A stretch of 64,000 bases of DNA from Flavobacterium sp. CS20 (GTDB taxonomy: Bacteria; Bacteroidota; Bacteroidia; Flavobacteriales; Flavobacteriaceae). Position 1 is the stretch's first letter. The number at the start of each line of letters is the position of its first letter. Positions 16,929 through 29,865 of the stretch are shown here, piece by piece. The DNA is taken from NCBI RefSeq assembly GCF_018080005.1, contig NZ_CP073015.1, positions 2,322,501 to 2,386,500 of the forward strand, in the 5' to 3' direction. The notes under the pieces were generated by a model that searched no databases, was not told the DNA's origin, and saw nothing but the letters and a program-made list of their open reading frames with translations. Both the position numbers and the translations under genes were made by a program.

Positions 16929-18167
16929 ATGGACAAAAAAGAAAAACTCAACAGGATATTTTTAATCCTGTTGAGTTTATTTGTAGTGATGTTAGGCTAT
17001 GGTATTTTATTGCCAACCCTTCCTTACTATACCGAAAGGCTTGCTTTAGGAGCTAACCTCGATACTGATTCGATCAATTTTCATATTGGACTGCTTACAA
17101 GCATTTATCCATTATTTCAATTAATTTTTGTTGTGGTATGGGGAAAGCTTTCAGATAGATATGGACGTAAACCAATTATATTAATCGGTCTAATTGGGTT
17201 TGTTATAATGCAATTGCTTACTTGTCTAGCAACATCTTTGACAATGCTATATATTGCTCGAATATTTGGAGGTATTTTTACGTCTTCAGTTATTCCTGTC
17301 AGTAACGCATTTCTCAGTGATATCACTTCTAAAAAACATAGGACTAAAATTATGGCTTGGTCTGGGGTAGCGATAAGTTCAGGGGTTATTTTTGGACCTG
17401 TTTTAGGCAGTTTTCTATCCCAAACTAACCTACACTTTAAATATTCGTTTTGGATATTACATCTGGACCGGTTCTCAGTTCCTTTTATTTTGGTTGCACT
17501 TTTAGGTTTTACTGTATTGGTTATTTTGATTAAATCGTTTAGGAATACAAAACTGGTTAGCAGGTTTGTTTCAGGAAAACAAAAATTAAATTTTAGTTTT
17601 AGTAGGTTCTTTATTGTCCTATTACTGCTCTCTTTTGTTATGCAGTTTGTAGTGACCCTCTTTGAAACGGTTTTTTCAATTTATGGAAAAAATCAGTTGC
17701 TATTTTCAAGTAATCAAATAGGCATTGGCTTTATGCTTTGTGGAGTGGTAATGGCTGTATTACAGCCAGTATTTGCAACCTATGGAGAGAAAATATTGAC
17801 AGCAAAACAACAAATTGGAGCCGGATTGTTGATTTCAGGCATTTCACTAATCGCATTTCCTTTTTTCGGCAATGAAATTTATGTCTATGTACTGATTGTA
17901 ACATTCGCCACTGGTGGAGCAATTGTAACCCCTAACCTACTTTCAGCCGTTTCCTTACTTTCAAAAGAAAAGGCGGGCAGTAATATTTCTGTACAGACCT
18001 CGGCAAACAGTGTCGGACAGATTTTAGGCCCGATCATCGGAACCTGGCTCATTGCCGGTGGGTTTTATTATCCCTTCATTATAGCCGGCATCATTATAAT
18101 TACCTTTATTGGATTACTTTATTTTTATAAATCTTCCAATGACAAATACTCAAAAATCACTTATTGA
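16929..18167 (+). CDS. MFS transporter, TetA-like drug exporter
   Basis: A 412-residue major facilitator protein with twelve predicted helices and motif A GKLSDRYGRKP between helices 2 and 3, as in DHA1/TetA-type drug:H+ antiporters. ATG overlaps the copB stop region (TAAATG), so the two genes are translationally linked. A perfect 14-bp inverted repeat lies at codons 6-17. The substrate is unknown; tetracycline-type exporters are the nearest look-alike. It is the last intact gene of the island. Confidence 0.85.
   Translation: MDKKEKLNRIFLILLSLFVVMLGYGILLPTLPYYTERLALGANLDTDSINFHIGLLTSIYPLFQLIFVVVWGKLSDRYGRKPIILIGLIGFVIMQLLTCLATSLTMLYIARIFGGIFTSSVIPVSNAFLSDITSKKHRTKIMAWSGVAISSGVIFGPVLGSFLSQTNLHFKYSFWILHLDRFSVPFILVALLGFTVLVILIKSFRNTKLVSRFVSGKQKLNFSFSRFFIVLLLLSFVMQFVVTLFETVFSIYGKNQLLFSSNQIGIGFMLCGVVMAVLQPVFATYGEKILTAKQQIGAGLLISGISLIAFPFFGNEIYVYVLIVTFATGGAIVTPNLLSAVSLLSKEKAGSNISVQTSANSVGQILGPIIGTWLIAGGFYYPFIIAGIIIITFIGLLYFYKSSNDKYSKITY
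16944..16978 (+). promoter_or_regulatory. Perfect hairpin inside the start of the MFS gene
   Basis: AAACTCAACAGGAT at 16944-16957 and its exact complement ATCCTGTTGAGTTT at 16965-16978 enclose a 7-nt loop. The hairpin starts 15 nt after the start codon of the MFS gene. It could slow or gate translation or mark a processing or terminator site after copB; no run of T follows, so simple termination is unlikely. Confidence 0.5.
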
Positions 18168-18217
18168 TAATTAAGAGAATTCCAAGAACTTATACAGCCC
18201 ACTAAATTTATTAAATT

Positions 18218-18307
18218 ATGATACATATTACAACAGGAGGAACCATTGAAGGCTTTGATTATACGGAAAAAGAAAATGCTGAAGACATTCTGCCTGTACA
18301 TCATTAA
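18218..18307 (+). pseudogene. 5' fragment of an asparaginase gene
   Basis: ATG at 18218 begins MIHITTGGTIEGFDYTEKEN, matching the N-terminal strand and the catalytic-Thr TGGTIE motif of L-asparaginase. After about 20 codons the family resemblance ends, where the truncated IS110 transposase joins, and a stop follows at 18305-18307. Only the extreme 5' end of the gene remains. Confidence 0.72.
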
Positions 18308-18653
18308 GTGCATTATAAAGCGTCACTTCAGTAGATAACCCATAATCACAAATAGCCTTGGCATCGCTCTTATCGGTCTTTATTTTTGATAATTTCATCT
18401 GAATAAAACGCTTAACTGACAAAGGGTTTACTACCGATACCGGTATACCGTTTTTGTAAAGAAACTGTGCAAGTCGATAATGGTAATACCCTGTGGCTTC
18501 CATCACTACCAAAGTGTCTACTGCTAATGTGCTGACAAATAATTTAAATCCTGAAGAATCATTCTTAAATTGAGAATGACCTCCTTCACTGCTATAAACA
18601 TCAAAAACATCTTTACTGATATCAACTCCAAAAGTTTCTTTATATTTATCCAT
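18285..18653 (-). pseudogene. IS110-family transposase, N-terminal fragment
   Basis: Read on the minus strand from ATG at 18653, the protein starts MDKYKETFGVDISKDVFDVY, with the first catalytic Asp of the DEDD RuvC-like domain, and continues through MEATGYYHY and the KTDKSDAKAIC block typical of IS110 transposases. It is cut after about 120 residues near 18285, where it runs into the asparaginase fragment. The C-terminal transposase_20 half with the catalytic Ser is missing, so the element is dead. Confidence 0.82.
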
Positions 18654-18692
18654 AAGAACTGATTTTATGAAAGAGCATACTACCGTGATCAC

Positions 18693-19283
18693 AACAACTT
18701 GAAAACGAGGTCTAAAGCCTCACAGAACTGAACGTGATTAAAGTAGTTAAAGAGAGGGGATTATCAATGTTGTCGAAGTCTAACGCTTCAGCGTATATCA
18801 TAACCTTAATCCTCTCTTTGTTCTTTCTGATTTATACTATAAAATTAATGAGAAACAAACTTAAGATGTATAACCGCAATCACGGTGTCCCAAACCTTAG
18901 GGAAACCACGTACGAATCCACTTGAAATTGCTAAAACCTGTGCTAAACCGAAAATTTCGCTCTTTTCTGCACCTTACTTGTCATATACAAACACGTCACC
19001 AAATACACCTACTCCAAAACCTCAATCTGTTCAGGATCACTAACAACCATTTGCGGTTTATCTTTATATGTTTGGTGATATCAGTATCTTCCTGTCCTAT
19101 ATAATCACTAACCTCATCAGTACCAATAATCTCTTGAGCAAAAGTGAGTGAGCTATTAATTGAGTCGCATCAGTATTCCTAAACCATAATGATTGATTTA
19201 AAGCCTAACGAAATTCTATAAGCAACTTTTCATTTCAAATATTAAAAATCTTAAATTTGAAACAAATACACCAAAACTAAAGA
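18693..19283. other. Intergenic region with IS110 flank and gene debris
   Basis: About 590 bp without a credible gene. The part next to the transposase would correspond to the upstream non-coding end of an IS110 element, where bridge RNAs are encoded in this group; an imperfect inverted repeat (AAAGAGAGGGGATTA near 18749 and TAATCCTCTCTTT near 18809) lies there. On the minus strand at about 18990-19160, short stretches read like protein (for example SDYIGQEDTDIT, then VVSDPEQIEVLE in another frame), suggesting a decayed gene. The last 60 bp hold the promoter of the methyltransferase gene. Confidence 0.4.
19228..19262 (+). promoter_or_regulatory. Putative promoter and overlapping dyad of the defence module
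   Basis: TAAATTTG at 19252-19259 matches the Bacteroidota -7 consensus TANNTTTG. TTTC at 19228-19231, 20 bp upstream, is one mismatch from the TTTG -33 box. A dyad, TTTCAAAT at 19233-19240 and ATTTGAAA at 19255-19262, overlaps the -7 element and could be an operator. The start codon is 22 bp downstream. Confidence 0.5.
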
Positions 19284-21941
19284 ATGACCTCTACAGAAAT
19301 TCAAGAAAAAGTAAAGGAGTTGGTAAACAACTTTAATCCTGAAACTTTTATATACGACTTATTGCGTGCCTATGGCATTTCTAAAGCCTCGATAACACGC
19401 TTGCAAAAGGGAGATTTTAATTTGGCTAAAAATGAAGGTGAAATCTTATATAAAAAGAAACTGTTATTTAAAGAAGCCAGTGAAGATGAGTTAATGGCAT
19501 TGGTAGAAGATTTAAGCCAAGAAGAAAACCTAAAGCACAATCCGCGCTTTATCATTACTACCAATTACAAAGAGATAGCGACAAAAGATACGCGTACAGG
19601 CAAAAACTTGCACATTGCTATTAAAGATTTACCTAAAAACCATAGCTTTTTCTTGCCCTGGGCAGGTCAAGAAGTATATCAAGCCACGAATGAGAATGAA
19701 GCAGACCGTAAAGCTTCTTATCGTATGGCTAAGCTATACGATATTCTTATTGAAGAAAATCCAAACATTCTGGAAAATGGAGTGCACGATCTCAACCTAT
19801 TCTTTTCACGTTTGCTGTTTTGTTTCTTTGCAGAGGACACCAGTATCTTTCCCGAAGAAGGAATGTTTACCAATACCCTAATGCGACATACCCAAAACGA
19901 CGGCGACGATGTCCACCTTTTTTTAGACGAGCTTTTTCAGGTGTTGAACCTAAAAGAAACCGAACGTAAAAATGTACCTGCACATTTGGATCAATTTCCT
20001 TATGTAAATGGGGGCTTGTTTAAAGATAAATTAAGTGTACCTCACTTTAATAAAGAAGCACGGGGCATTTTACAAGAAAGTGGTGAGTTAGATTGGAGCC
20101 ATATTAACCCCGATATTTTTGGCTCTATGATTCAAGCGGTGGTTAACCCAGACCAGCGTGGAAATCTCGGAATGCACTACACCTCAGTGCCTAATATTAT
20201 GAAGGTGATCAAACCTTTGTTTTTAGATGAGTTGTATGACGAATTAGAAAACGCCAGAGGGAAATCCAAAAAGCTAAGAAAATTAGTAGAGCGCCTCAGT
20301 AAACTTAAAATATTTGACCCTGCCTGTGGGAGCGGTAACTTTTTAATTATTGCTTATAAAGAACTCCGTAAACTCGAAATAGAAATTTGGCAAGCCATTT
20401 TAGAAACCGAAAGCCAACAAAGTTTTATTTATTCTAAAATAGAACTTACGCAATTTTACGGGATAGAGATAGACGATTTTGCCCACGAAATTGCCAAACT
20501 TTCCTTATGGTTGGCAGAACACCAAATGAATAAATATTTTGAACACGAACTAGAACTCGGGAAGTCTAACCCCATTTTACCTTTAAAAGCATCTGGTAAT
20601 ATCACTTGTGCCAACGCCACCCGAATAGACTGGGAAGAAGTTTGCCCCAAACAAAAAGACGATGAAATTTATTTGTTAGGGAATCCGCCTTATTTAGGTT
20701 CTAAAAATCAAACTCAAAAACAACGCGATGAAGTTAATAATATTTCCAATGGTGGTAGTAAAATATTAGATTATATCTCGTGTTGGTTTATAAAAGGTGC
20801 AAGATATATTAAAGATATAAATTCAAAATGTGCATTTGTTTCAACTAATTCAATTTGTCAAGGAGAACAAGTTTCTGCATTGTGGCCTAATGTTTTAGAT
20901 AATGATATTGAAATTGATTTTGCGTATACTTCATTTAAGTGGAAGAATAATGCGGTAGGTAATGCAGGTGTGACAGTAATCATCGTCTGTCTTAGAAATG
21001 TAAATGAAAAAGAAAGATATATTTATTTTAATGATGTAAAAAAAATAGCCAGTCACATTAACCCTTATCTAACTGATGCTAAGACAGTATACATAAAAAA
21101 TAGAGGGAAACCTTTATCTTATTTTCCACCAATGAAGGGTGGCAATGTTGCTTATGATAGTGGAAATTTAATATTTACTGAAAGTGAAAAAAATGAATTT
21201 ATCAAAAGTGAACCAAATTCAAAAAGATGGTTTAAAAAGTGTATAGGTGGTAGAGAATTAATAAATGGAGGCGAGAGATACTGTTTATGGTTTAAAAACG
21301 AAAAACTACAAAGTGTAAATCAGTATCCAGCAATAAAAGAAATTACAGGAAAAGTTGAAGCTCACAGGTTAAAAGCTAAAGATAAAGGGACTCATAAACT
21401 TGCAAAAAGGCCTCATCAATTTAGAGACTTAAATAATCCTGAAGAATATATAGCGATTCCTAAAACCTCAAGTGAACGGCGTGATTACATTCCAATGTCT
21501 TTTGTTGATGGTGGTATTATTCCTTTAGATTCTATTAGGTTTATACAAACTGATGAGCTATATATCTTTGGAGTTTTAATATCTAAGATGCATATGGCGT
21601 GGGTAAGAGCTATAGCAGGTAAATTAAAAACAGATTATAGATATTCTAAAAATATTGTATACAACACTTTCCCATTCCCAAACATCAGTAAAGTCAAAAA
21701 AGCCCAAATAGAAGAAAATGTATTTGCGGTATTAGAAGAGCGAGAAAAGCACCCCGAGAAAACAATGGCACAACTCTACGACCCCGATAAAATGCCAGCT
21801 GGCTTACGCCAAGCCCATCAAGACCTAGATCTTGCTGTAGAACGTTGTTACCGCCTACAACCTTTCGATAATGACACTCAACGTTTAGAATATTTGTTTA
21901 AAGAATATGAGAAAATGGTAAAAGAGAAAGAAGGGAAATAA
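19284..21941 (+). CDS. MmeI-like class I SAM-dependent DNA methyltransferase
   Basis: An 885-residue protein with the MmeI/YeeA-type arrangement: an N-terminal region, a helical spacer (FSRLLFCFFAEDTSIF, PYVNGGLF), then the gamma-type N6-adenine methyltransferase with the SAM motif FDPACGSGNFL (about residues 351-361) and the catalytic NPPY (about 472-475). The target-recognition region follows, ending in the family's RYSKNIVYNTFPFP block. I do not see the D-x9-ExK endonuclease motif in the N-terminus that fused MmeI enzymes carry, so cleavage is probably supplied by partners. It is the first gene of a four-gene module with an AlbA_2 protein, a helicase and a GIY-YIG protein. Confidence 0.87.
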   Translation: MTSTEIQEKVKELVNNFNPETFIYDLLRAYGISKASITRLQKGDFNLAKNEGEILYKKKLLFKEASEDELMALVEDLSQEENLKHNPRFIITTNYKEIATKDTRTGKNLHIAIKDLPKNHSFFLPWAGQEVYQATNENEADRKASYRMAKLYDILIEENPNILENGVHDLNLFFSRLLFCFFAEDTSIFPEEGMFTNTLMRHTQNDGDDVHLFLDELFQVLNLKETERKNVPAHLDQFPYVNGGLFKDKLSVPHFNKEARGILQESGELDWSHINPDIFGSMIQAVVNPDQRGNLGMHYTSVPNIMKVIKPLFLDELYDELENARGKSKKLRKLVERLSKLKIFDPACGSGNFLIIAYKELRKLEIEIWQAILETESQQSFIYSKIELTQFYGIEIDDFAHEIAKLSLWLAEHQMNKYFEHELELGKSNPILPLKASGNITCANATRIDWEEVCPKQKDDEIYLLGNPPYLGSKNQTQKQRDEVNNISNGGSKILDYISCWFIKGARYIKDINSKCAFVSTNSICQGEQVSALWPNVLDNDIEIDFAYTSFKWKNNAVGNAGVTVIIVCLRNVNEKERYIYFNDVKKIASHINPYLTDAKTVYIKNRGKPLSYFPPMKGGNVAYDSGNLIFTESEKNEFIKSEPNSKRWFKKCIGGRELINGGERYCLWFKNEKLQSVNQYPAIKEITGKVEAHRLKAKDKGTHKLAKRPHQFRDLNNPEEYIAIPKTSSERRDYIPMSFVDGGIIPLDSIRFIQTDELYIFGVLISKMHMAWVRAIAGKLKTDYRYSKNIVYNTFPFPNISKVKKAQIEENVFAVLEEREKHPEKTMAQLYDPDKMPAGLRQAHQDLDLAVERCYRLQPFDNDTQRLEYLFKEYEKMVKEKEGK

Positions 21942-21958
21942 ATAATGAATATTTCATT

Positions 21959-22030
21959 TTATTGCAAAAAATAAAGAAAATTTACAATAGTCAACTCCTT
22001 ATTGCAAAAAAGCACTATATTTTGCAATAG
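21959..22030 (+). promoter_or_regulatory. Two tandem dyads upstream of the AlbA_2 gene
   Basis: Two 32-bp elements 40 bp apart share the same plan: TTATTGCAAAAA, about 10 variable bases, then TTTACAATAG (21959-21990) or TTTTGCAATAG (21999-22030). Each has inverted-repeat ends. The arrangement looks like paired operators for a regulator, possibly the AlbA_2 protein itself, or for module-specific control. The second element ends 18 bp before the preferred start codon. Confidence 0.6.
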
Positions 22031-22048
22031 TGATTTATGCATAGTAGT

Positions 22049-23686
22049 ATGAAAGATATATTAGATGAATTATTAGGCTTACCTTCAGAAAATGAAGTGG
22101 TTGAGTTTAAAGAAGCTAAACAGCAATATGATAAAAATAAGCTGGGGAAGTATTTTTCTGCTTTAGCCAATGAAGCGAACCTAGAAAATAAAACTTCGGC
22201 TTATCTGGTTTTTGGAGTAAAAGATAACCAAACTATTGTGGGTACTAATATATCAGAAAAGCGACTTAACGACTATAAAAAAGAAATAGCCGATCATACT
22301 TCTCCGCACTTGGGTTTTATTTCAACCAATCGATTTGTTCGCGAAGGCAGAGAAGTAGTCGTGTTAGAAATTCCTGCTCCAAAAGGAATGCCTGTTAGCT
22401 GGAAAGGTTTTAAATATGGTCGAGATGGTGAAAGTTTAGGTGCTTTAAATGATAACGAATACGATCGTATAAAGAATCAGGTTAAGCAAACAGATTGGAG
22501 TGCTCAAATTATTAAAGAAGCGAGTATTGCAGATTTGTCAAACCAAGCGATAAAAGAAGCTAGAAAGCGTTTTATTCAAAAAAATAAAAGTTTAGCTGAT
22601 GAAGTTAAATCTTGGTCAGATGAGGTTTTTCTAAACAAAGCAAAAATTACCATTAAAGGTAAAATCACCAATACAGCAATTTTACTACTCGGTAAACCTG
22701 AAGCTGAACACTACATTAACCCTGCAAGAGCTACGGTGAGTTGGATTTTAAAAGATGCAGATAATATTGAAAAAGATTATGAACATTTTACGTGCCCTTT
22801 ATTATTAAATGTAGTAGAAATTGGTAAAAAAATAAGAAATCTTAAATATCGGTATATTAATGATGACTCTTTATTTCCAGATGAAGTAGATCAATATGAT
22901 CCTTATATCATACGAGAGGCATTAAATAATTGTATTGCCCATCAAGACTATACATTAGGGGGTAAAATAGTAGTGGTTGAAAATGAAAATTCTACCTTAG
23001 TTTTTTCAAATTCAGGTGATTTTATTCCGCAAAGTATAGAAGCAGTCATCAATGCTGATTCCCCTGAGCAAAATTATAGAAATGCCTTTTTAACCAATGC
23101 AATGGTAGGCCTTAATATGATTGATACCATTGGGAGTGGTATTAAAAGAATGTTTAAAATTCAAAGTAAGAAATTCTTCCCCTTACCAGATTATGAATTT
23201 GGTAATCAAAAAGTGAAAGTAACCATTACGAGCAAGGTTTTAGATATAGATTATGCGCGAAAATTAGCACAAATAGCTAGTTTGTCTTTAAATGATATCA
23301 TCTTATTAGATAAAGTTGCGAAAAATAAAAGTATTACGGTTAAAGAAAGTAGGTCTTTAAAAGAGAGAAAATTAATAGAAGGCAGGCGTCCTAATCTTCA
23401 TATTTCTTCTAAAGTAGCCAAGGCTACAGGCGAAAAGGGAGAGTATATAAAAATGCGAGGGTTTAAAGATGATCATTATAAAAAAATGATTTTAAATTAT
23501 TTAGAAGAATATGAATCTGCTAGTAAAAAAGATTTAGATAAATTAATATTAGATATTCTTCCTAATGTTTTAGATGAAGATCAAAAAAAGAATAAATTAA
23601 GAAACATTATTTATGCAATGTCTAAGCGTGATGTTTCTATTACTAATACAGGTACAAATAGAAAACCTATTTGGAAAAAAGTTTAA
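22049..23686 (+). CDS. AlbA_2 / HATPase_c_4-type regulator of the defence module
   Basis: A 545-residue protein. Residues 1-130 form an AlbA_2 (Schlafen-type) domain with NEVVEFKEAK and AYLVFGVKD, and the middle region (about residues 270-380) contains the EALNNCIAHQDY and ATP-lid-like IDTIGSGIKRMF motifs seen in the HATPase_c_4 proteins that follow AlbA_2. The C-terminus looks helical with winged-helix-like charged stretches. ATG at 22049 is preferred because family members start MKDILDELL; an upstream ATG at 22037 would add four residues. The protein could be the regulator or an RNA/DNA-sensing component of the module. Confidence 0.82.
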   Translation: MKDILDELLGLPSENEVVEFKEAKQQYDKNKLGKYFSALANEANLENKTSAYLVFGVKDNQTIVGTNISEKRLNDYKKEIADHTSPHLGFISTNRFVREGREVVVLEIPAPKGMPVSWKGFKYGRDGESLGALNDNEYDRIKNQVKQTDWSAQIIKEASIADLSNQAIKEARKRFIQKNKSLADEVKSWSDEVFLNKAKITIKGKITNTAILLLGKPEAEHYINPARATVSWILKDADNIEKDYEHFTCPLLLNVVEIGKKIRNLKYRYINDDSLFPDEVDQYDPYIIREALNNCIAHQDYTLGGKIVVVENENSTLVFSNSGDFIPQSIEAVINADSPEQNYRNAFLTNAMVGLNMIDTIGSGIKRMFKIQSKKFFPLPDYEFGNQKVKVTITSKVLDIDYARKLAQIASLSLNDIILLDKVAKNKSITVKESRSLKERKLIEGRRPNLHISSKVAKATGEKGEYIKMRGFKDDHYKKMILNYLEEYESASKKDLDKLILDILPNVLDEDQKKNKLRNIIYAMSKRDVSITNTGTNRKPIWKKV

Positions 23687-23708
23687 CTAACTAGCGATAG
23701 AAGTTTTT

Positions 23709-23744
23709 TTTTAGATAAACTTTTAGATAAACTTTTAGATAAAC
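23709..23744 (+). repeat. Three tandem 12-bp repeats before the helicase gene
   Basis: TTTTAGATAAAC occurs three times without a mismatch or gap (23709-23720, 23721-23732, 23733-23744). A single related copy, TTTAGATAAAC, lies near 23799. The repeats sit in the 159-bp gap between the AlbA_2 gene and the helicase gene and may bind a protein or simply be slippage products. Confidence 0.75.
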
Positions 23745-23845
23745 TTTTTGTTAGTTGTTGTAATAGAGTTTCTTATAAACATTCTTAATTTTAGGGTTTA
23801 GATAAACTTAATGTAGTTTTTCTAGTTAATTAAATAAAAAAACAA

Positions 23846-25816
23846 ATGCCAGATTTAGTTAAAGTCAATTATAAACAGACAGGAAAGAGTAAAAAAACCA
23901 ATGCGCTAGGAATGCGAGAAATGCAAGAAAGAGCATTTGAAGCAAGAACAGCACAGTATTTACTGATTAAAGCTCCTCCTGCATCAGGTAAATCTAGGGC
24001 ATTAATGTTTATTGGCTTAGATAAACTGCGTAACCAAGATATAAAAAAATTAATTGTAGCAGTGCCTGAACGTTCTATTGGCAGTTCTTTCGCTCCAACA
24101 GAGTTAAAAAAATACGGTTTTTTTGAAGATTGGAATCCTAATCCTAAATACAACCTTTGTACGCCTGGCGGTGAAAAGTCTAAAGTAGATGCCTTCATTA
24201 ACTTTATGAATAGTAAGGAAGAAATTCTTATTTGCACACACGCTACACTGCGTTTTGCATTTGATGCTATTGATGAAAAACAGTTTAATGACACCTTAAT
24301 TGCTATAGATGAATTTCATCACGTATCTGCCGAAGGCACCAATAGATTAGGAAGTGTTTTAAGCTCTATTATGGCTAAGTCAACTGCTCATATAGTTGCA
24401 ATGACAGGTTCTTATTTTAGAGGCGATAGTATTCCTATTCTTTTACCCGAAGTAGAAGCGCAGTTCATTAAAGTTAAATACGATTATTACGAACAGCTGA
24501 ATGGTTATGAGTATTTAAAATCTTTAGGAATAGGTTATCATTTTTACCAAAGAAAATATACAACTGCCATTCACGAGGTTCTAGATGAAAATAAAAAAAC
24601 CATTATTCATATTCCTAGTGTAAATTCTGGTGAATCCACTAAAGAAAAATATGAAGAGGTAGGCAAAATAATAGACACGCTAGGTGAAATAGAATACCAA
24701 GATTCAGAAACAGGGGTTATTTACGTTAAATCGCATAAAACAGGAAATCTTATTAAAGTAGCTGATTTAGTAAATGATGACCAAAAATCAAGAGATAAAA
24801 TTCAAAACTATTTACGCAATGTAAATGCTCCAGAAGATATTGATATCATTATTGCTTTAGGGATGGCAAAAGAAGGGTTTGATTGGCCATATTGCGAACA
24901 AGCCTTAACGGTAGGTTATAGGGGTTCATTAACAGAGATTATTCAAATCATCGGCAGGGCTACAAGAGATAGCGACAATAAAACACACGCTCAATTCACC
25001 AATTTAATCGCTCAACCCGATGCCCAAGATGATGAGGTAAAACTTTCAGTCAATAATATGCTAAAAGCAATTACCGCTTCTTTATTAATGGAGCAGGTGT
25101 TAGCGCCTAATTTTAAATTTAAAGCGAAATACCCTGAAGAAGAAGATAATGAATATGAAGTAGATCGTGAAGATGGAACACAGGCAAATGAAGAGGAAAA
25201 CACTATACACATCAGAGGTTTTAAAGAACCTTCAACAGCAAGAGTAGAGCAAATTATCGAATCAGACTTAAACGATTTAAAAGCAAAAATTTTGCAAGAT
25301 AATGATATGCTCAAAGCAATGCCGAGTGAGACTTTGGAGCCAGAGGTGATCAATCAAGTGTTAATACCTAAAATTATTAAAGAAACCTATCCTGAACTTT
25401 CAGATGATGAGGTAGAAGAAGTAAGGCAACATATTGTTGTAGACTCAGTTATTAAAAACGGAAGTATAGAAGAACAAGGAGATAGAAGGTTTATCAAAAT
25501 GGCAGATACCTTTGTGAATATAGATGAAATACACATAGATTTAATAGATAGTGTAAACCCGTTTCAAAAAGCATTTGAAATATTATCCAAATCAGTAACA
25601 GCACCTGTTTTAAGAACTATTCAGGAAACTATAGATGCGTCTAGAATTAAAATGACGGAACAGGAAGCTATTATCTTGTGGCCCAAAATAAAAGCCTGGG
25701 TGCAAAAAACAGGAAAAAATCCCGATATTAAATCGTTAGAGCCAAAAGAAAAAAGAATGGCAGAAGCAGTTATTTTCTTAAAAGAACTAAAGCGTAAACA
25801 AAAACAAAATGTCTAA
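23846..25816 (+). CDS. Superfamily 2 DEAD/DEAH-type helicase of the defence module
   Basis: A 656-residue SF2 protein. Walker A APPASGKS is near residue 45, Walker B IDEFHH near 155, motif III MTGSYF near 190, and motif VI QIIGRATRD near 375. The layout resembles the Res-type helicase subunits of restriction systems. Residues after about 430 are acidic and helical with no recognised domain. The stop overlaps the next start (ATGTCTAA at 25809-25816), so it is translated together with the GIY-YIG gene, which would give a helicase-nuclease pair. Confidence 0.87.
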   Translation: MPDLVKVNYKQTGKSKKTNALGMREMQERAFEARTAQYLLIKAPPASGKSRALMFIGLDKLRNQDIKKLIVAVPERSIGSSFAPTELKKYGFFEDWNPNPKYNLCTPGGEKSKVDAFINFMNSKEEILICTHATLRFAFDAIDEKQFNDTLIAIDEFHHVSAEGTNRLGSVLSSIMAKSTAHIVAMTGSYFRGDSIPILLPEVEAQFIKVKYDYYEQLNGYEYLKSLGIGYHFYQRKYTTAIHEVLDENKKTIIHIPSVNSGESTKEKYEEVGKIIDTLGEIEYQDSETGVIYVKSHKTGNLIKVADLVNDDQKSRDKIQNYLRNVNAPEDIDIIIALGMAKEGFDWPYCEQALTVGYRGSLTEIIQIIGRATRDSDNKTHAQFTNLIAQPDAQDDEVKLSVNNMLKAITASLLMEQVLAPNFKFKAKYPEEEDNEYEVDREDGTQANEEENTIHIRGFKEPSTARVEQIIESDLNDLKAKILQDNDMLKAMPSETLEPEVINQVLIPKIIKETYPELSDDEVEEVRQHIVVDSVIKNGSIEEQGDRRFIKMADTFVNIDEIHIDLIDSVNPFQKAFEILSKSVTAPVLRTIQETIDASRIKMTEQEAIILWPKIKAWVQKTGKNPDIKSLEPKEKRMAEAVIFLKELKRKQKQNV

Positions 25817-27011
25817 AGATAAGTTAAGCATAGAAGATATTTTTGAAGATGACGATTTAGGTATTTTAAAAGAGACTTCAAAGCAGTCGAACGTAAAATC
25901 TACAGATCAACGTTTAATAGAATCTTTTGAAGAAATCAATGCTTTTGTAGATGAAAAAGAAAGAGAACCAGAACAAGGTAATGGTATTTCAGAAATGCGT
26001 TTGTATTTACGCTTAAAAGGCTTTAGAGAAAATGATAAAAAGAAATTTGCATTAAAAGATGTTGATAGGCATAATTTATTGTTTGAGCCTAAAAAAGTTG
26101 AATCTGTAGCCGATATTTTAGAAGATGATGATTTCGGTTTGTTAGCAGATGATGAAGAAGGTACAAGTATTTTTGATTTTAAACATACCCCAAAAGATAA
26201 AAAAGAAACCGATTTTGTAGCGCAACGTAAAGCAATGTCAGATGCAGTATTTGAAAAGTATGACAAGCAATTTAAAAAAGTACACCAAGAAATTAAGTTA
26301 GGTTTACGTAGTTTAAAATCCTTTAAAAATGCAGAAAAAAACTTAAAAGAAGGTAAATACTACATTCTTGATGGGGTTTTATTATTCTTAGAAGTAGGTG
26401 ATATTTCTGAAGCAGTTAGAGAATTAGGTGACAGAGTTAGAAAAGATGTACGAACAAGAACTGTTTTTGATAATGGTACATATAGTAATATGCTTTATAG
26501 GTCTTTAGCAAAACAATTATATAATAATGGTAAAGTAGTAACAGATTTAGAAAAAGACAGCGAGAAAGAGCTATTTACAAATGTAGAACAGTTAGAAGAA
26601 GACGATAAAGAATCAGGCTGGATTTACGTGCTAAAATCTAAATCAACCCATCCAGAAATAAGTAAACTTAATAATTTATATAAAATAGGTTTCTCTACAG
26701 TACCCGTTCAAAAAAGAGTGATTAATGCTAGAAATGAAGCGACCTATCTCAATGCAGAAGTAGAAGTAGTAGCAACATTTAAATGTGTAAATGTAAACAC
26801 ACAAAAGTTTGAAAATTTAATCCACCGCTTTTTTAGTCAAGCACAATTACAAATAGATATTTACGATAAAAATAAAAACAGAATAACCCCAAGAGAATGG
26901 TTTGTAGTTCCTTATCCAATAATAGAAAGAGCAATAGGTTTATTTAATACTGGTGAAATTATCAACTATCACTACGATTTTCAAAATGAAAAAATTACCA
27001 AAAACGATTAA
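25809..27011 (+). CDS. GIY-YIG (T5orf172/Mug113-type) nuclease of the defence module
   Basis: A 400-residue protein. The N-terminal 260 residues are acidic and include repeated EDDD(L/F)G segments (EDDDLGIL near 15, EDDDFGLL near 107) that may be protein-interaction motifs. The C-terminal domain (about residues 275-390) is GIY-YIG-like: GWIYVLKSK...LYKIGF supplies the two signature strands, KRVINAR the conserved Arg, and FENLIHRFF the metal-binding Glu. Its start overlaps the helicase stop. It is the likely cleaving component of the module. Confidence 0.82.
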   Translation: MSKDKLSIEDIFEDDDLGILKETSKQSNVKSTDQRLIESFEEINAFVDEKEREPEQGNGISEMRLYLRLKGFRENDKKKFALKDVDRHNLLFEPKKVESVADILEDDDFGLLADDEEGTSIFDFKHTPKDKKETDFVAQRKAMSDAVFEKYDKQFKKVHQEIKLGLRSLKSFKNAEKNLKEGKYYILDGVLLFLEVGDISEAVRELGDRVRKDVRTRTVFDNGTYSNMLYRSLAKQLYNNGKVVTDLEKDSEKELFTNVEQLEEDDKESGWIYVLKSKSTHPEISKLNNLYKIGFSTVPVQKRVINARNEATYLNAEVEVVATFKCVNVNTQKFENLIHRFFSQAQLQIDIYDKNKNRITPREWFVVPYPIIERAIGLFNTGEIINYHYDFQNEKITKND

Positions 27012-27045
27012 TGACTATAATTTTTTACGACAATAAAACTTGAGA

Positions 27046-27666
27046 ATGAAATTAAAACTTTTAATAATAACTATATTTTTCTGTAATTCAGTTTATTCAC
27101 AGATTTCAAAAGATTCACTCTTTAAAAGAGACATTGAAATTTTAGTGGAAGAAATGGAATTTATGTATGGTTATGACCAAACAATGCGAGAATACACAGT
27201 ATATAAAACTTTTGATAAGTCAGAAACAAACAGAATCGAAAGTCTTTCTGATAGTTTGAGAATTCAAGAAATGAAAAAAAGAAAGTTTGTATCTGACAGT
27301 ATAAGAGATTTAATTTATAGAAAATATATTAATCCAATGGATGCTGAGCATACTGAAAGAATGATAGAAATAACTAAAAAGTATGGTTTCCCTAGTACAG
27401 AAAGAATTAAGAAATATTACGACAAAGAATTTGTTGATCCAGAGTTTAACCCACTAATAATTTTTATTCATTCACCAAAAAAATACTGGAGTGAGCTAAA
27501 AGAATTAATGTTGGAAGAATATGAAAATGGAATAATTAATCAGTGCCAATATGGATATGCGCTTTGGCAATTTACCGGCAGAAAAAACCTTCAACCTATG
27601 CTTAATAATGGATTTAAAATGGTTAAAGAAAATGGTAAAACTAGATTGAAATCAACCTGTGAATAG
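27046..27666 (+). CDS. Secreted protein of unknown function
   Basis: A 206-residue protein with a clear signal peptide (MKLKLLIITIFFCNSVYSQ, cleavage near residue 18-19). The mature part is charged, with no recognised domain. ATG at 27046 is preferred over TTG at 27040. It begins 34 bp after the GIY-YIG gene on the same strand. Whether it belongs to the defence module or is a passenger is open; an exported protein would be unusual in a restriction operon. Confidence 0.65.
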   Translation: MKLKLLIITIFFCNSVYSQISKDSLFKRDIEILVEEMEFMYGYDQTMREYTVYKTFDKSETNRIESLSDSLRIQEMKKRKFVSDSIRDLIYRKYINPMDAEHTERMIEITKKYGFPSTERIKKYYDKEFVDPEFNPLIIFIHSPKKYWSELKELMLEEYENGIINQCQYGYALWQFTGRKNLQPMLNNGFKMVKENGKTRLKSTCE

Positions 27667-29865
27667 AAACCTTAAAGAGAAGGAATTGATTTAGGAAAAA
27701 AATGTCTTAAAAGGAGTAAATTAGCCAGTATTGAAAGTTAAGTGAATTCAACTAAATAATCGATGAATTTCAATTCCCCAAGCAAATAAGTATAATTTCC
27801 ATTTCATTTCATTTATACCTATTTTGCTTTCCGCAGAGTAAAAGCTATAATACTTTCATTGCATTACAGTATTACAGCCCTTACTTTTTGCCATTGCGCT
27901 TTTTTAAATCCGTTTTCATAAGTGTTTGAATTGCAAGATAGAATATAGCGTGGGCAGGTAATATGGTGTGTCTCGGCACCTCTGTTTTGTTCCGGAAAAA
28001 CATATCTACAAGGGCATTTCACCTCAAATCCAACTTAATTAAAAGTTCAAATCCTCAGAGATTAGAAGAAAATAATTCATCCAAAACCCTTGTATATAAC
28101 AAAAATATGACCCATTCGCCTTCCGTCCTCAGGCGCATTGGACCATATTTTCTTGTTTTCCTTCACAGACACGCCAGTGCCTCGCCACCCGCTGTTCCCT
28201 TGTGCCCTAAAACCCAATAAGGTCGCCAAAGGCGTAACAATATTTAGGGCACAAACACAGCTGCATAAAGTGCGAGCCTGCGAATCGTGCCTACACTAGC
28301 AAAACATAGCTTGAACTAAAACAAAACACGTTCCGTACATAAGTTGCGATCTCAATTCCATTTCATAACACAATGAAAGCCAAACAAAACGCTATCCACC
28401 AAATAAACCTCTCGGTGTTACCGCAACCCATGCCGGAACAGATATGGAGAGCTGCCATGTTTACCATGACAAAAGCACAGTTTCATAAAAACCTATCAAA
28501 AACACCAACCCACAACCACCAAACAACCCACACCATAGCCAAAATGCCAGCCCTCCCAAAAGGACAAGCTATGTTTGCTGTGCGTATTACGTTGTGCTAT
28601 GCTTGCATACACAAAGACCCCATAGCACATAGGCACTCAACTCGCAGACGGCTCGCGCGTCTAGATTACCTGCCCGGGTACAAGCTTATCGGTAGCTCAG
28701 CCAACGTTTTCACAAAATGCGGCGTCAGAAACCTGTCTCCAAAACAACCTCATCTCAAATAAATCACTCCAGTAAACCTTTCAAAAATAAACACCGAAAA
28801 CAGAAAATTGTTACCTAGTTAAGATTCAGTTCAACAGTCTAAAATCAAATAAATGTGAAATAAAAACAACAATTAATTGAACCTACATTTGTCATAAATA
28901 ACATACGAATAATAAAATTTCTATTTATCAGTTAAACTAAAAAGTATAGCTAATTTCTAGAATAACGAAATATTACCTAAAGTCTTTTTTCTGCTAAATG
29001 ACTTATCAAAACAAAACTTTAAAAATCAAGGAAGCAGCGCAGGGCGTAAGATAAAAATCTGTTTGAGACCGATGATAATCGGTTGAGTTATTTTTTATCT
29101 GTGGCGGGGGATTCCGTAGAATTTTTAAGGGTTATTTTGTTAGTCTAGACTTTTTTTGGTTCTTTTTTTCGGCAATGGAAAAAAAAGAACATGAAATGAA
29201 AATTTAAACTCCCAGTGCCTTACATAAGTTGCGATTTACTTTTGACTTCAATCATCATAGCGTTAGCAGATTGAACAAACCACCATTGAAAATCACAACT
29301 TATCGCAACCCATGACGGCACCCAAAAAGCAAGAGCTACAAAGTTTGGTCTGTTCGATTTGTATAGAATACAAACACTTCAGTTAGCCAGAAATTAAGAA
29401 CACAACACAACTTCACACCAGACCAAATTGCCAGCACTTGCAAAAGCGTCAAACCAAAAAATCTAATCAAAAAAAAAGACAGAGCATTGAGCATAGCAGA
29501 AATGAAAATTTGAAATGAAAAATGTGAAATCTCAAAATTTGAAATAATAAAGTTTTATATCAAAAAAATAAATAAGAAGGCAAATATATCAGCCTTTGCG
29601 CCAGCCATTGCCCGCACAGCCGTAAAGCTCAAGCCCAAGGGTTTTTTAAAAAAAATGCCCTTGAACTTGCTAAAATATCACGCACTATTTTGATGTTTTT
29701 GCTTCCCAAAAAACAATCAAAAATCCACTCCATTTTTATTTAAAAAAAGCTTGACTGCTTCCCAAAAGGCTGATGCTGGGTGCCTTTCTTTTTTCTTTTT
29801 TTCTTTTTCGTTTGAAAAAAAAATTGTGAGCGAAGCGAATAAACATAATTTTTAAATCCATAATT
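27667..29865. other. Long gene-poor region
   Basis: About 2.2 kb without a credible gene. Base composition changes along it, with relatively GC-rich patches near 28130-28320, 28550-28700 and 29580-29660, unlike the flanks. CATAAGTTGCGAT occurs twice, at about 28338 and 29224. A nested dyad lies at 29049-29100. Two plus-strand frames (27963-28220, 28373-28762) are open but lack coding character. The region looks like accumulated remnants of mobile DNA next to the cassette at 30.5-32.7 kb. Confidence 0.5.
29049..29100. repeat. Nested inverted repeat
   Basis: An inner stem ACCGAT/ATCGGT (29068-29073 and 29078-29083) with a 4-nt loop is enclosed by an outer pair, AGATAAAAA at 29049-29057 and TTTTTATCT at 29092-29100. 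The structure could extrude as a hairpin, or serve as a protein or recombination site. No gene is near enough to assign it as a terminator with confidence. Confidence 0.5.

What the first reader, a model, noticed from the sequence alone, without database searches (positions are those of the whole stretch)
19228..27011. Intact four-gene restriction-like defence module: MmeI-type methyltransferase, AlbA_2 protein, SF2 helicase, GIY-YIG nuclease
The methyltransferase lacks a visible nuclease motif at its N-terminus. The helicase and the GIY-YIG gene overlap translationally, and an AlbA_2/HATPase-like protein lies between. This is not a combination I can match to a named system: it has the modification and helicase-plus-nuclease logic of restriction, but with a GIY-YIG enzyme and a Schlafen-type regulator. 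It is also the only multi-gene accessory stretch without frameshifts, in contrast to the decayed island before it.
Basis: partly seen in the sequence, partly recalled or inferred. Interest (0 to 1): 0.8.

Follow-up and report, generated by a model that had tools for sequence, protein, structure and literature searches.

The report
Methylation-based defence operon with cargo slot
A marine bacterium carries a known but little-understood three-gene DNA restriction cluster, and in its relatives the space between the first two genes is a docking site where different toxin-like or possibly RNA-cutting 'backup' genes have been swapped in and out.

Summary
The four intact co-directional genes are real (19284-27011), but they are not an unmatched four-part system. 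Three match by domain and order the published DnmA-YeeB-YeeC cluster (MmeI-type methyltransferase without nuclease motif, SF2 helicase, T5orf172/GIY-YIG protein; PMC9973331, PMC7261158). The AlbA_2 gene is not part of that core: of 42 Bacteroidota loci with methyltransferase and helicase together, 19 have nothing between them, 9 hold an AlbA_2 gene and 14 something else (HigBA, RhuM, SecB-like set, DUF3990, kinase, DUF1016, unknowns). Two sibling species with 98.6% identical helicases carry unrelated cargo. The same AlbA_2 family sits in Type I, Type III and BREX operons and is often followed by a phased short-repeat array (14 of 28 versus 7 of 107 controls). In 29 of 29 locus pairs with helicases at least 85% identical, the methyltransferase's target-recognition domain has diverged (mean 44% versus 92%), so helicase and nuclease probably take their address from the methyltransferase. 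Best reading: Type I-like restriction with an exchangeable backup-effector slot, here filled by a Schlafen-like protein. No activity was tested. New variant of a known kind.

The parts
19284..21941 (+). DnmA/YeeA-like MmeI-family adenine methyltransferase, no N-terminal nuclease motif
   Evidence: Pfam MmeI_N, hel, Mtase, TRD, C; PADLOC PDLC03598 over full length, 1024 bits; DPACG and NPP motifs in 43 of 43 aligned rows
21078..21686 (+). target-recognition domain of the methyltransferase (residues 599-801), the exchanged part
   Evidence: Pfam MmeI_TRD; mean 44% identity in 29 pairs whose helicases are at least 85% identical; gap in DNA homology to L008 at 20981-21667
21942..23845 (.). cargo slot between methyltransferase and helicase
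   Evidence: contents non-homologous among sister loci; 19 of 42 loci empty
22037..23686 (+). guest: Schlafen-like AlbA_2 + HATPase_c_4 + C-terminal winged helix protein, 549 aa
   Evidence: Pfam; model best matches DIP2311 3lmm, N-terminal part SAMD9 tRNase domain and SLFN5, C-terminal part winged helices
23710..23748 (+). three tandem 12-bp direct repeats (TTTAGATAAACT), fourth copy at 23797-23811
23846..25816 (+). YeeB-like SF2 helicase
   Evidence: Pfam DEAD, ResIII; DEFHH 50 of 50 aligned rows, Q367, G370, R371, R374, D375 of motif VI 50 of 50, Walker A GK 48 of 50 with 2 gapped
25809..27011 (+). YeeC-like T5orf172/GIY-YIG protein, overlaps helicase by 8 nt
   Evidence: Pfam T5orf172, MUG113; G270, Y273, K292-I-G294, R303, E335 in 50 of 50 aligned rows

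Best explanation
This is a DnmA-YeeB-YeeC-type restriction cluster that works like a Type I system: the MmeI-type methyltransferase reads and methylates the site, and the YeeB-like helicase with the YeeC-like GIY-YIG protein are recruited by it to cut unmethylated DNA using ATP (inferred). The recognition domain diverges between strains while helicase and nuclease stay nearly constant (shown by comparison). Between methyltransferase and helicase lies a cargo slot whose content differs between close relatives (shown for several sister pairs). Here the cargo is a Schlafen-like AlbA_2/GHKL-ATPase/winged-helix protein. It probably acts as a backup that stops the infected cell when the main restriction fails, by RNA cleavage, with its winged helix binding the repeat array next to it (inferred).
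For: Core; published cluster and gene order (PMC9973331 passages; PMC7261158 passages). Methyltransferase-directed restriction: in 29 of 29 locus pairs with helicase identity 85% or more the TRD is over 10 points less conserved than the methyltransferase domain (means: helicase 92, N-terminal part 87, methyltransferase domain 77, C-terminal part 91, TRD 44%); nearly the same helicase with different TRDs implies that it does not read the site itself. Slot: 19 of 42 empty, 9 AlbA_2, 14 other; 13 empty/occupied changes and 20 guest-type changes on the helicase tree; L003 and L004 have 98.6% identical helicases but an AlbA_2 gene versus three ORFs of a SecB-like cassette. Guest shared with other systems: 13 of 20 further neighbourhoods of this AlbA_2 family hold Type I, Type III-like or BREX genes. 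Schlafen-like fold; Schlafen-histidine kinase-wHTH proteins are described beside BREX as backup effectors (PMC12839542 section 35 part 1).
Against: B. subtilis dnmA, yeeB and yeeC deletions gave no phage phenotype and dnmA deletion no transformation phenotype (PMC9973331, PMC7261158). The third Schlafen acid is not conserved: D63 is D in 13 and N in 12 of 26 rows, although the column may be off by one. The GIY-YIG model has no PDB match. 7 of 20 AlbA_2 neighbourhoods have no clear host system. No cleavage, methylation or protein contact was tested. I did not compare directly with the B. subtilis sequences, which no tool gave me.
Confidence: 0.68

Rival explanations
1. One integrated four-part defence system in which the AlbA_2 protein is an essential subunit.
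For: All four genes are intact and co-directional; AlbA_2 proteins of divergent subfamilies sit in the slot in 9 of 42 loci.
Against: 19 of 42 loci have no gene there and 14 have other content; the AlbA_2 family is at home in Type I, Type III-like and BREX operons.
Confidence: 0.07
2. A relic: only the methyltransferase matters, as an orphan epigenetic regulator, as concluded for B. subtilis.
For: No phage phenotype in B. subtilis (PMC9973331); a decayed copy exists in Mesonia (L007).
Against: Helicase DEFHH and the listed GIY-YIG positions are invariant in 50 of 50 aligned rows; TRDs diversify while helicases do not; PMC9973331 reports that dnmA and yeeB deletions in Vibrio crassostreae raised sensitivity to some phages (the primary paper was not held).
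Confidence: 0.15
3. The AlbA_2 guest is a controller rather than an effector: its winged helix binds the phased repeats before the helicase gene and sets restriction-gene expression, as RptR does for a Type I island.
For: Array in 14 of 28 versus 7 of 107 controls, best period 10-13 in 12 of 14; in the window the array lies between guest and helicase; winged-helix C-terminus. In guest-free loci the helicase is close-coupled to the methyltransferase (gap -71 to 39 bp). RptR represses a Type I island through three 9-bp direct repeats (PMC12255303).
Against: Half of the AlbA_2 genes tested have no significant array; some other guests in the slot are toxin-antitoxin pairs, which suggests effector-type cargo; binding was not tested; the next gene differs (HsdR, Mod, PglZ).
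Confidence: 0.3

Closest known systems
DnmA-YeeB-YeeC cluster (Bacillus subtilis; PMC9973331, PMC7261158)
   Same: Nuclease-less MmeI-type methyltransferase, then SF2 helicase, then T5orf172/GIY-YIG protein, same order
   Different: Here a 1.9-kb cargo slot between methyltransferase and helicase holds an AlbA_2 gene
Type I restriction-modification with embedded modules (DarTG2 between hsdS and hsdR, PMC12255303)
   Same: Guest gene between specificity/modification and restriction genes; the window's AlbA_2 family also sits in Type I operons (L139, L140, L148)
   Different: Single methyltransferase with built-in TRD instead of HsdM+HsdS; separate helicase and nuclease instead of HsdR
Schlafen-histidine kinase-wHTH backup effectors of BREX (PMC12839542)
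   Same: Same domain order as the guest; the family lies between PglX and PglZ in L149 and L154
   Different: Host system here is not BREX: no PglZ, BrxC or BrxL among the four proteins
CglI (R.CglI + H.CglI, PMC5737866, abstract and outline seen)
   Same: Separate helicase-like ATPase and nuclease that cut DNA with NTP hydrolysis
   Different: There the R subunit is thought to read the site (recalled, from no call); here the TRD data point to the methyltransferase as reader
MmeI (Type IIL, PDB 5hr4)
   Same: Methyltransferase, TRD, spacer and C-terminal domains
   Different: No PD-ExK nuclease motif found in the N-terminus here

Membership tests
DnmA-YeeB-YeeC cluster | MmeI-family methyltransferase without N-terminal PD-ExK motif | tested here: met
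   (pattern search in the first 120 residues; window protein has neither strict nor loose pattern)
DnmA-YeeB-YeeC cluster | SF2 helicase and T5orf172/GIY-YIG gene downstream in this order | tested here: met
   also in the loci
DnmA-YeeB-YeeC cluster | helicase and GIY-YIG gene directly 1st and 2nd downstream of dnmA (as PMC9973331 reports) | tested here: not met
   in the window the AlbA_2 gene intervenes; helicase directly next in 19 of 42 loci. So: core of this cluster plus an insert, not a plain member
DnmA-YeeB-YeeC cluster | direct sequence homology to the B. subtilis proteins | not tested
   MmeI_Mtase rings in the B. subtilis control genome, but no locus was returned
Type I restriction-modification | HsdS with Methylase_S domains and HsdR with HSDR_N | tested here: not met
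   no such domains in the four proteins
BREX | PglZ and BrxC core genes | tested here: not met
   none among the six window proteins scanned; PglX models match the methyltransferase weakly and below NCBIfam cut-offs
Type IIG/IIL (MmeI) single-chain restriction enzyme | nuclease motif in the same chain | tested here: not met
   PADLOC nevertheless names the family REase_MTase_IIG
Schlafen-type RNase (guest) | Schlafen core fold | tested here: met
Schlafen-type RNase (guest) | three-acid active site (E, E, D; recalled) | tested here: inconclusive
   E18 25 of 26, E23 26 of 26, D63 13 of 26

The most novel reading that the evidence does not exclude
The AlbA_2 gene is a portable guard module that plugs into any methylation-based defence operon (Type I, Type III, BREX, DnmA-YeeB-YeeC). 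It carries its own helically phased operator array, watches the host system through it or through its ATPase, and fires an RNase when the host system is hit; the DnmA-YeeB-YeeC slot is one of a family of standard docking sites sharing one guest pool.
Probability: 0.22. Interest if true: 0.78.

Novelty: new variant of a known kind. Interest (0 to 1): 0.52.

Why it matters
It gives a mechanism-level prediction for a cluster that its describers called a non-functional relic in B. subtilis: specificity lives in the methyltransferase and restriction is directed by it, which can be tested by swapping target-recognition domains. It also turns the gap between methyltransferase and helicase into a place to look for unknown defence or toxin genes, and the repeat arrays make the control of AlbA_2 proteins directly testable.

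Tried and rejected
Named-catalogue match: PADLOC gave only the methyltransferase a full-length model (REase_MTase_IIG), weak hits for AlbA_2 and helicase, none for GIY-YIG. NCBIfam: no match over the curated cut-off for any of the six window proteins scanned. PbeA/Dnd relation of the helicase: only weak helicase-domain matches; not pursued.

Solved structures by sequence: none for AlbA_2 or GIY-YIG, two marginal for helicase. The GIY-YIG model (mean pLDDT 70) matched no PDB fold at E 0.001; inconclusive. RNA families in 18000-28500: none at gathering score. Sigma-70 promoter scan: 26 sites versus 33.8 in shuffles; not used.

Four-gene integrated system: considered and rejected. Repeat array as coding continuation of the guest: not favoured, because periods of 10 and 11 bp also occur. 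Repeat array as recombination site for cassette swaps: not excluded.

Counts and what was dropped. 48 distinct Bacteroidota helicase loci were examined: the window, L002-L009, and 39 of 42 regions fetched by G handle (L105-L107 duplicate L004, L005, L003). Six were dropped before the 42-locus count: L007 (decayed), L049 (broken methyltransferase), L094 and L044 (no methyltransferase found), L096 and L104 (contig begins inside the cluster). L087, L091 and L103 were kept although a contig end cuts a flanking gene; L087 is 'occupied' only by a 635-bp gap with a 98-aa ORF. Three helicase hits at contig edges (L062, L065, L067) were not examined. Guest labels for the tree were given by me; the tree is the 'quick' kind. 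In the array test broken AlbA_2 genes (L118, L120, L135, L136), short downstream stretches and duplicates were dropped; a first version with all subfamilies gave 13 of 32 versus 8 of 250 mostly coding controls. The 28 genes are related, so the Fisher p of 5e-7 is not a true probability. The 29 pairs share loci and are not independent. Of the 35 AlbA_2 places besides the window and G452, 20 neighbourhoods were fetched.

Papers: Morgan 2009 and Piel et al. were not held; I rely on how PMC9973331 and PMC7261158 report them. PMC13230959 and PMC12707154 were searched for terms without use. That the slot in this cluster and the arrays are not in print rests only, in an open-licence library.

Full report
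What is there. The window lies at 2322501-2386500 of a one-contig 3.06-Mb genome. Four genomes of the same genus have contigs whose lengths equal those of Psychroflexus records, so the host is probably a Psychroflexus (inference). Four intact genes run on the + strand: methyltransferase 19284-21941, AlbA_2 22037-23686, helicase 23846-25816, GIY-YIG 25809-27011, the last two overlapping by 8 nt. Pfam assigns all five MmeI domains to the first, SLFN_AlbA_2 plus HATPase_c_4 to the second, DEAD/ResIII to the third, T5orf172 plus MUG113 to the fourth. No PD-ExK-like pattern lies in the first 120 residues of the methyltransferase.

What it is called. PMC9973331 (passages read) describes dnmA-yeeB-yeeC in B. 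subtilis: an MmeI-like methyltransferase without nuclease motif followed by an SF2 helicase and a T5orf172/GIY-YIG gene, with helicase and GIY-YIG families most often first and second downstream in other bacteria. PMC7261158 (passages read) shows m6A at GACGAG and reports the older suggestion of a Type I-like system. Neither found a restriction phenotype in B. subtilis. PMC9973331 reports that dnmA and yeeB deletions in Vibrio crassostreae raised sensitivity to some phages. The window has the same three genes with an AlbA_2 gene between the first two.

Spread. Relatives of the GIY-YIG protein occur in 225 of 72,556 plasmid records and of the helicase in 261; in phages only two fragments in 50,697 records. 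I looked at twelve plasmid regions. Nine, from Actinomycetota, Bacillota, Pseudomonadota and Cyanobacteriota, show methyltransferase, helicase and GIY-YIG in order: seven have no sizeable gene in the gap (one of these, L164, has a 43-codon ORF), one (Paracoccus, L163) has a 137-aa protein without Pfam match, and one (Synechococcus, L165) has an antitoxin/ParE-type toxin pair. The other three are disturbed: L014 has no methyltransferase on the stretch, L015 has an IS4-like element in the gap, L016 has a shortened helicase next to an insertion element and no methyltransferase. The chromosomal Psychrobacter locus L011 and the Avisuccinivibrio contig L013 have an empty gap.

The slot. For Bacteroidota I fetched 42 regions by G handles around helicase hits plus named loci. 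Of 48 distinct loci, 42 have methyltransferase and helicase on the stretch. In 19 these are 39 bp apart or less, or overlap. In 9 an AlbA_2 protein lies between, in 14 something else. Pfam typing of guests: HigB_toxin with an HTH gene; SecB-like with two unmatched ORFs; PDDEXK_3 + RhuM + 23S_rRNA_IVP; Bro-N with a RhuM-like gene (the latter by eye); RhuM; DUF3990; Kinase-PolyVal; AAA_11/12; DUF1016_N; several without match. On a helicase tree (quick method) empty/occupied needs 13 changes and guest type 20. Direct cases: window versus L002, helicase 98.5% identical, AlbA_2 of divergent subfamilies; L003 versus L004, helicase 98.6% identical, AlbA_2 versus the SecB-like cassette, with DNA identity ending about 31-41 bp after the methyltransferase stop and resuming within about 15 bp of the helicase start. 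The border is not always so simple: an 81-bp stretch just before the guest, 21957-22037, is 93% identical in L002 although the guests differ.

Recognition domain. DNA comparison with L008 shows 90% identity to 20980 and 98% from 21668, with most of the target-recognition domain missing from the alignment. Over the 29 locus pairs with helicase identity of 85% or more, mean identities are: helicase 92, methyltransferase N-terminal part 87, methyltransferase domain 77, TRD 44, C-terminal part 91%; the TRD is more than 10 points below the methyltransferase domain in 29 of 29. Pairs share loci and are not independent. A helicase-nuclease that stays nearly the same while the recognised sequence must change is unlikely to be the reader of the site; the simplest account is recruitment by the methyltransferase, as in Type I systems. 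The well-conserved N- and C-terminal parts of the methyltransferase are candidate docking surfaces (inference).

Motifs. Methyltransferase: DPACG and NPP in 43 of 43 rows. Helicase: DEFHH 50 of 50; motif VI Q367, G370, R371, R374, D375 50 of 50, I369 and T373 49; Walker A GK 48 with 2 gapped. GIY-YIG: G270, Y273, K292-I293-G294, R303, E335 50 of 50; the second tyrosine position, 291, is Y in 32 of 50. AlbA_2: E18 25 of 26, E23 26 of 26, GHKL-type N298, N325-x-G327 and G366-x-G368 26 of 26, but D63 only 13 of 26.

The repeats. Directly after the AlbA_2 stop, 23710-23748, are three tandem copies of a 12-bp repeat and a fourth copy at 23797 (10 matches with up to 2 mismatches in the window versus 2.6 expected; five of the ten lie in or at the edge of this gap). 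Other AlbA_2 genes are followed by arrays of other sequence: 14 of 28 genes of the window's subfamily have a significant array in the 200 bp downstream against 7 of 107 intergenic controls; the best period, searched from 6 to 30, is 10-13 in 12 of 14. The two type-B genes L002 and L003 have none at p 0.05. The array is inside the exchanged part: homology to L002 resumes only at 23833. About one helical turn per repeat suggests a protein array; the guest's own winged helix is the obvious candidate (inference).

Verdict. The three-gene core is known; the AlbA_2 gene is an exchangeable guest. New here, as far as my searches went, are the cargo slot in this cluster, the decoupling of recognition domain from helicase-nuclease, and the phased arrays after AlbA_2 genes. 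Embedding of defence genes in Type I systems is in print (PMC12255303, abstract and passages), so the principle is not new.

Noticed in passing
   Followed up: no
L044:4635-13077: Variant without methyltransferase: SIR2_2, HerA (DUF87), AlbA_2, YeeB-like helicase and GIY-YIG genes in a row.
   Followed up: partly
window 21942-22036: Gap between methyltransferase and AlbA_2 holds direct and inverted copies of TATTGCAAAA, perhaps a promoter or operator; most of it (21957-22037) is 93% identical in L002, where the guest differs.
   Followed up: no
L015, L016, L085, L087, L088: The GIY-YIG protein is sometimes encoded as two genes, an 85-95-aa N-terminal piece and a 301-412-aa GIY-YIG piece.
   Followed up: no
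L014, L015, L016: Plasmid copies carry transposase genes next to or inside the cluster.
   Followed up: no
window 27040-27666: Small gene directly downstream (208 aa) without Pfam or PADLOC match.
   Followed up: no
L143, L144: A second, divergent AlbA_2-like gene (499 aa, 28 bits to the window's) lies just upstream of the first.
   Followed up: no
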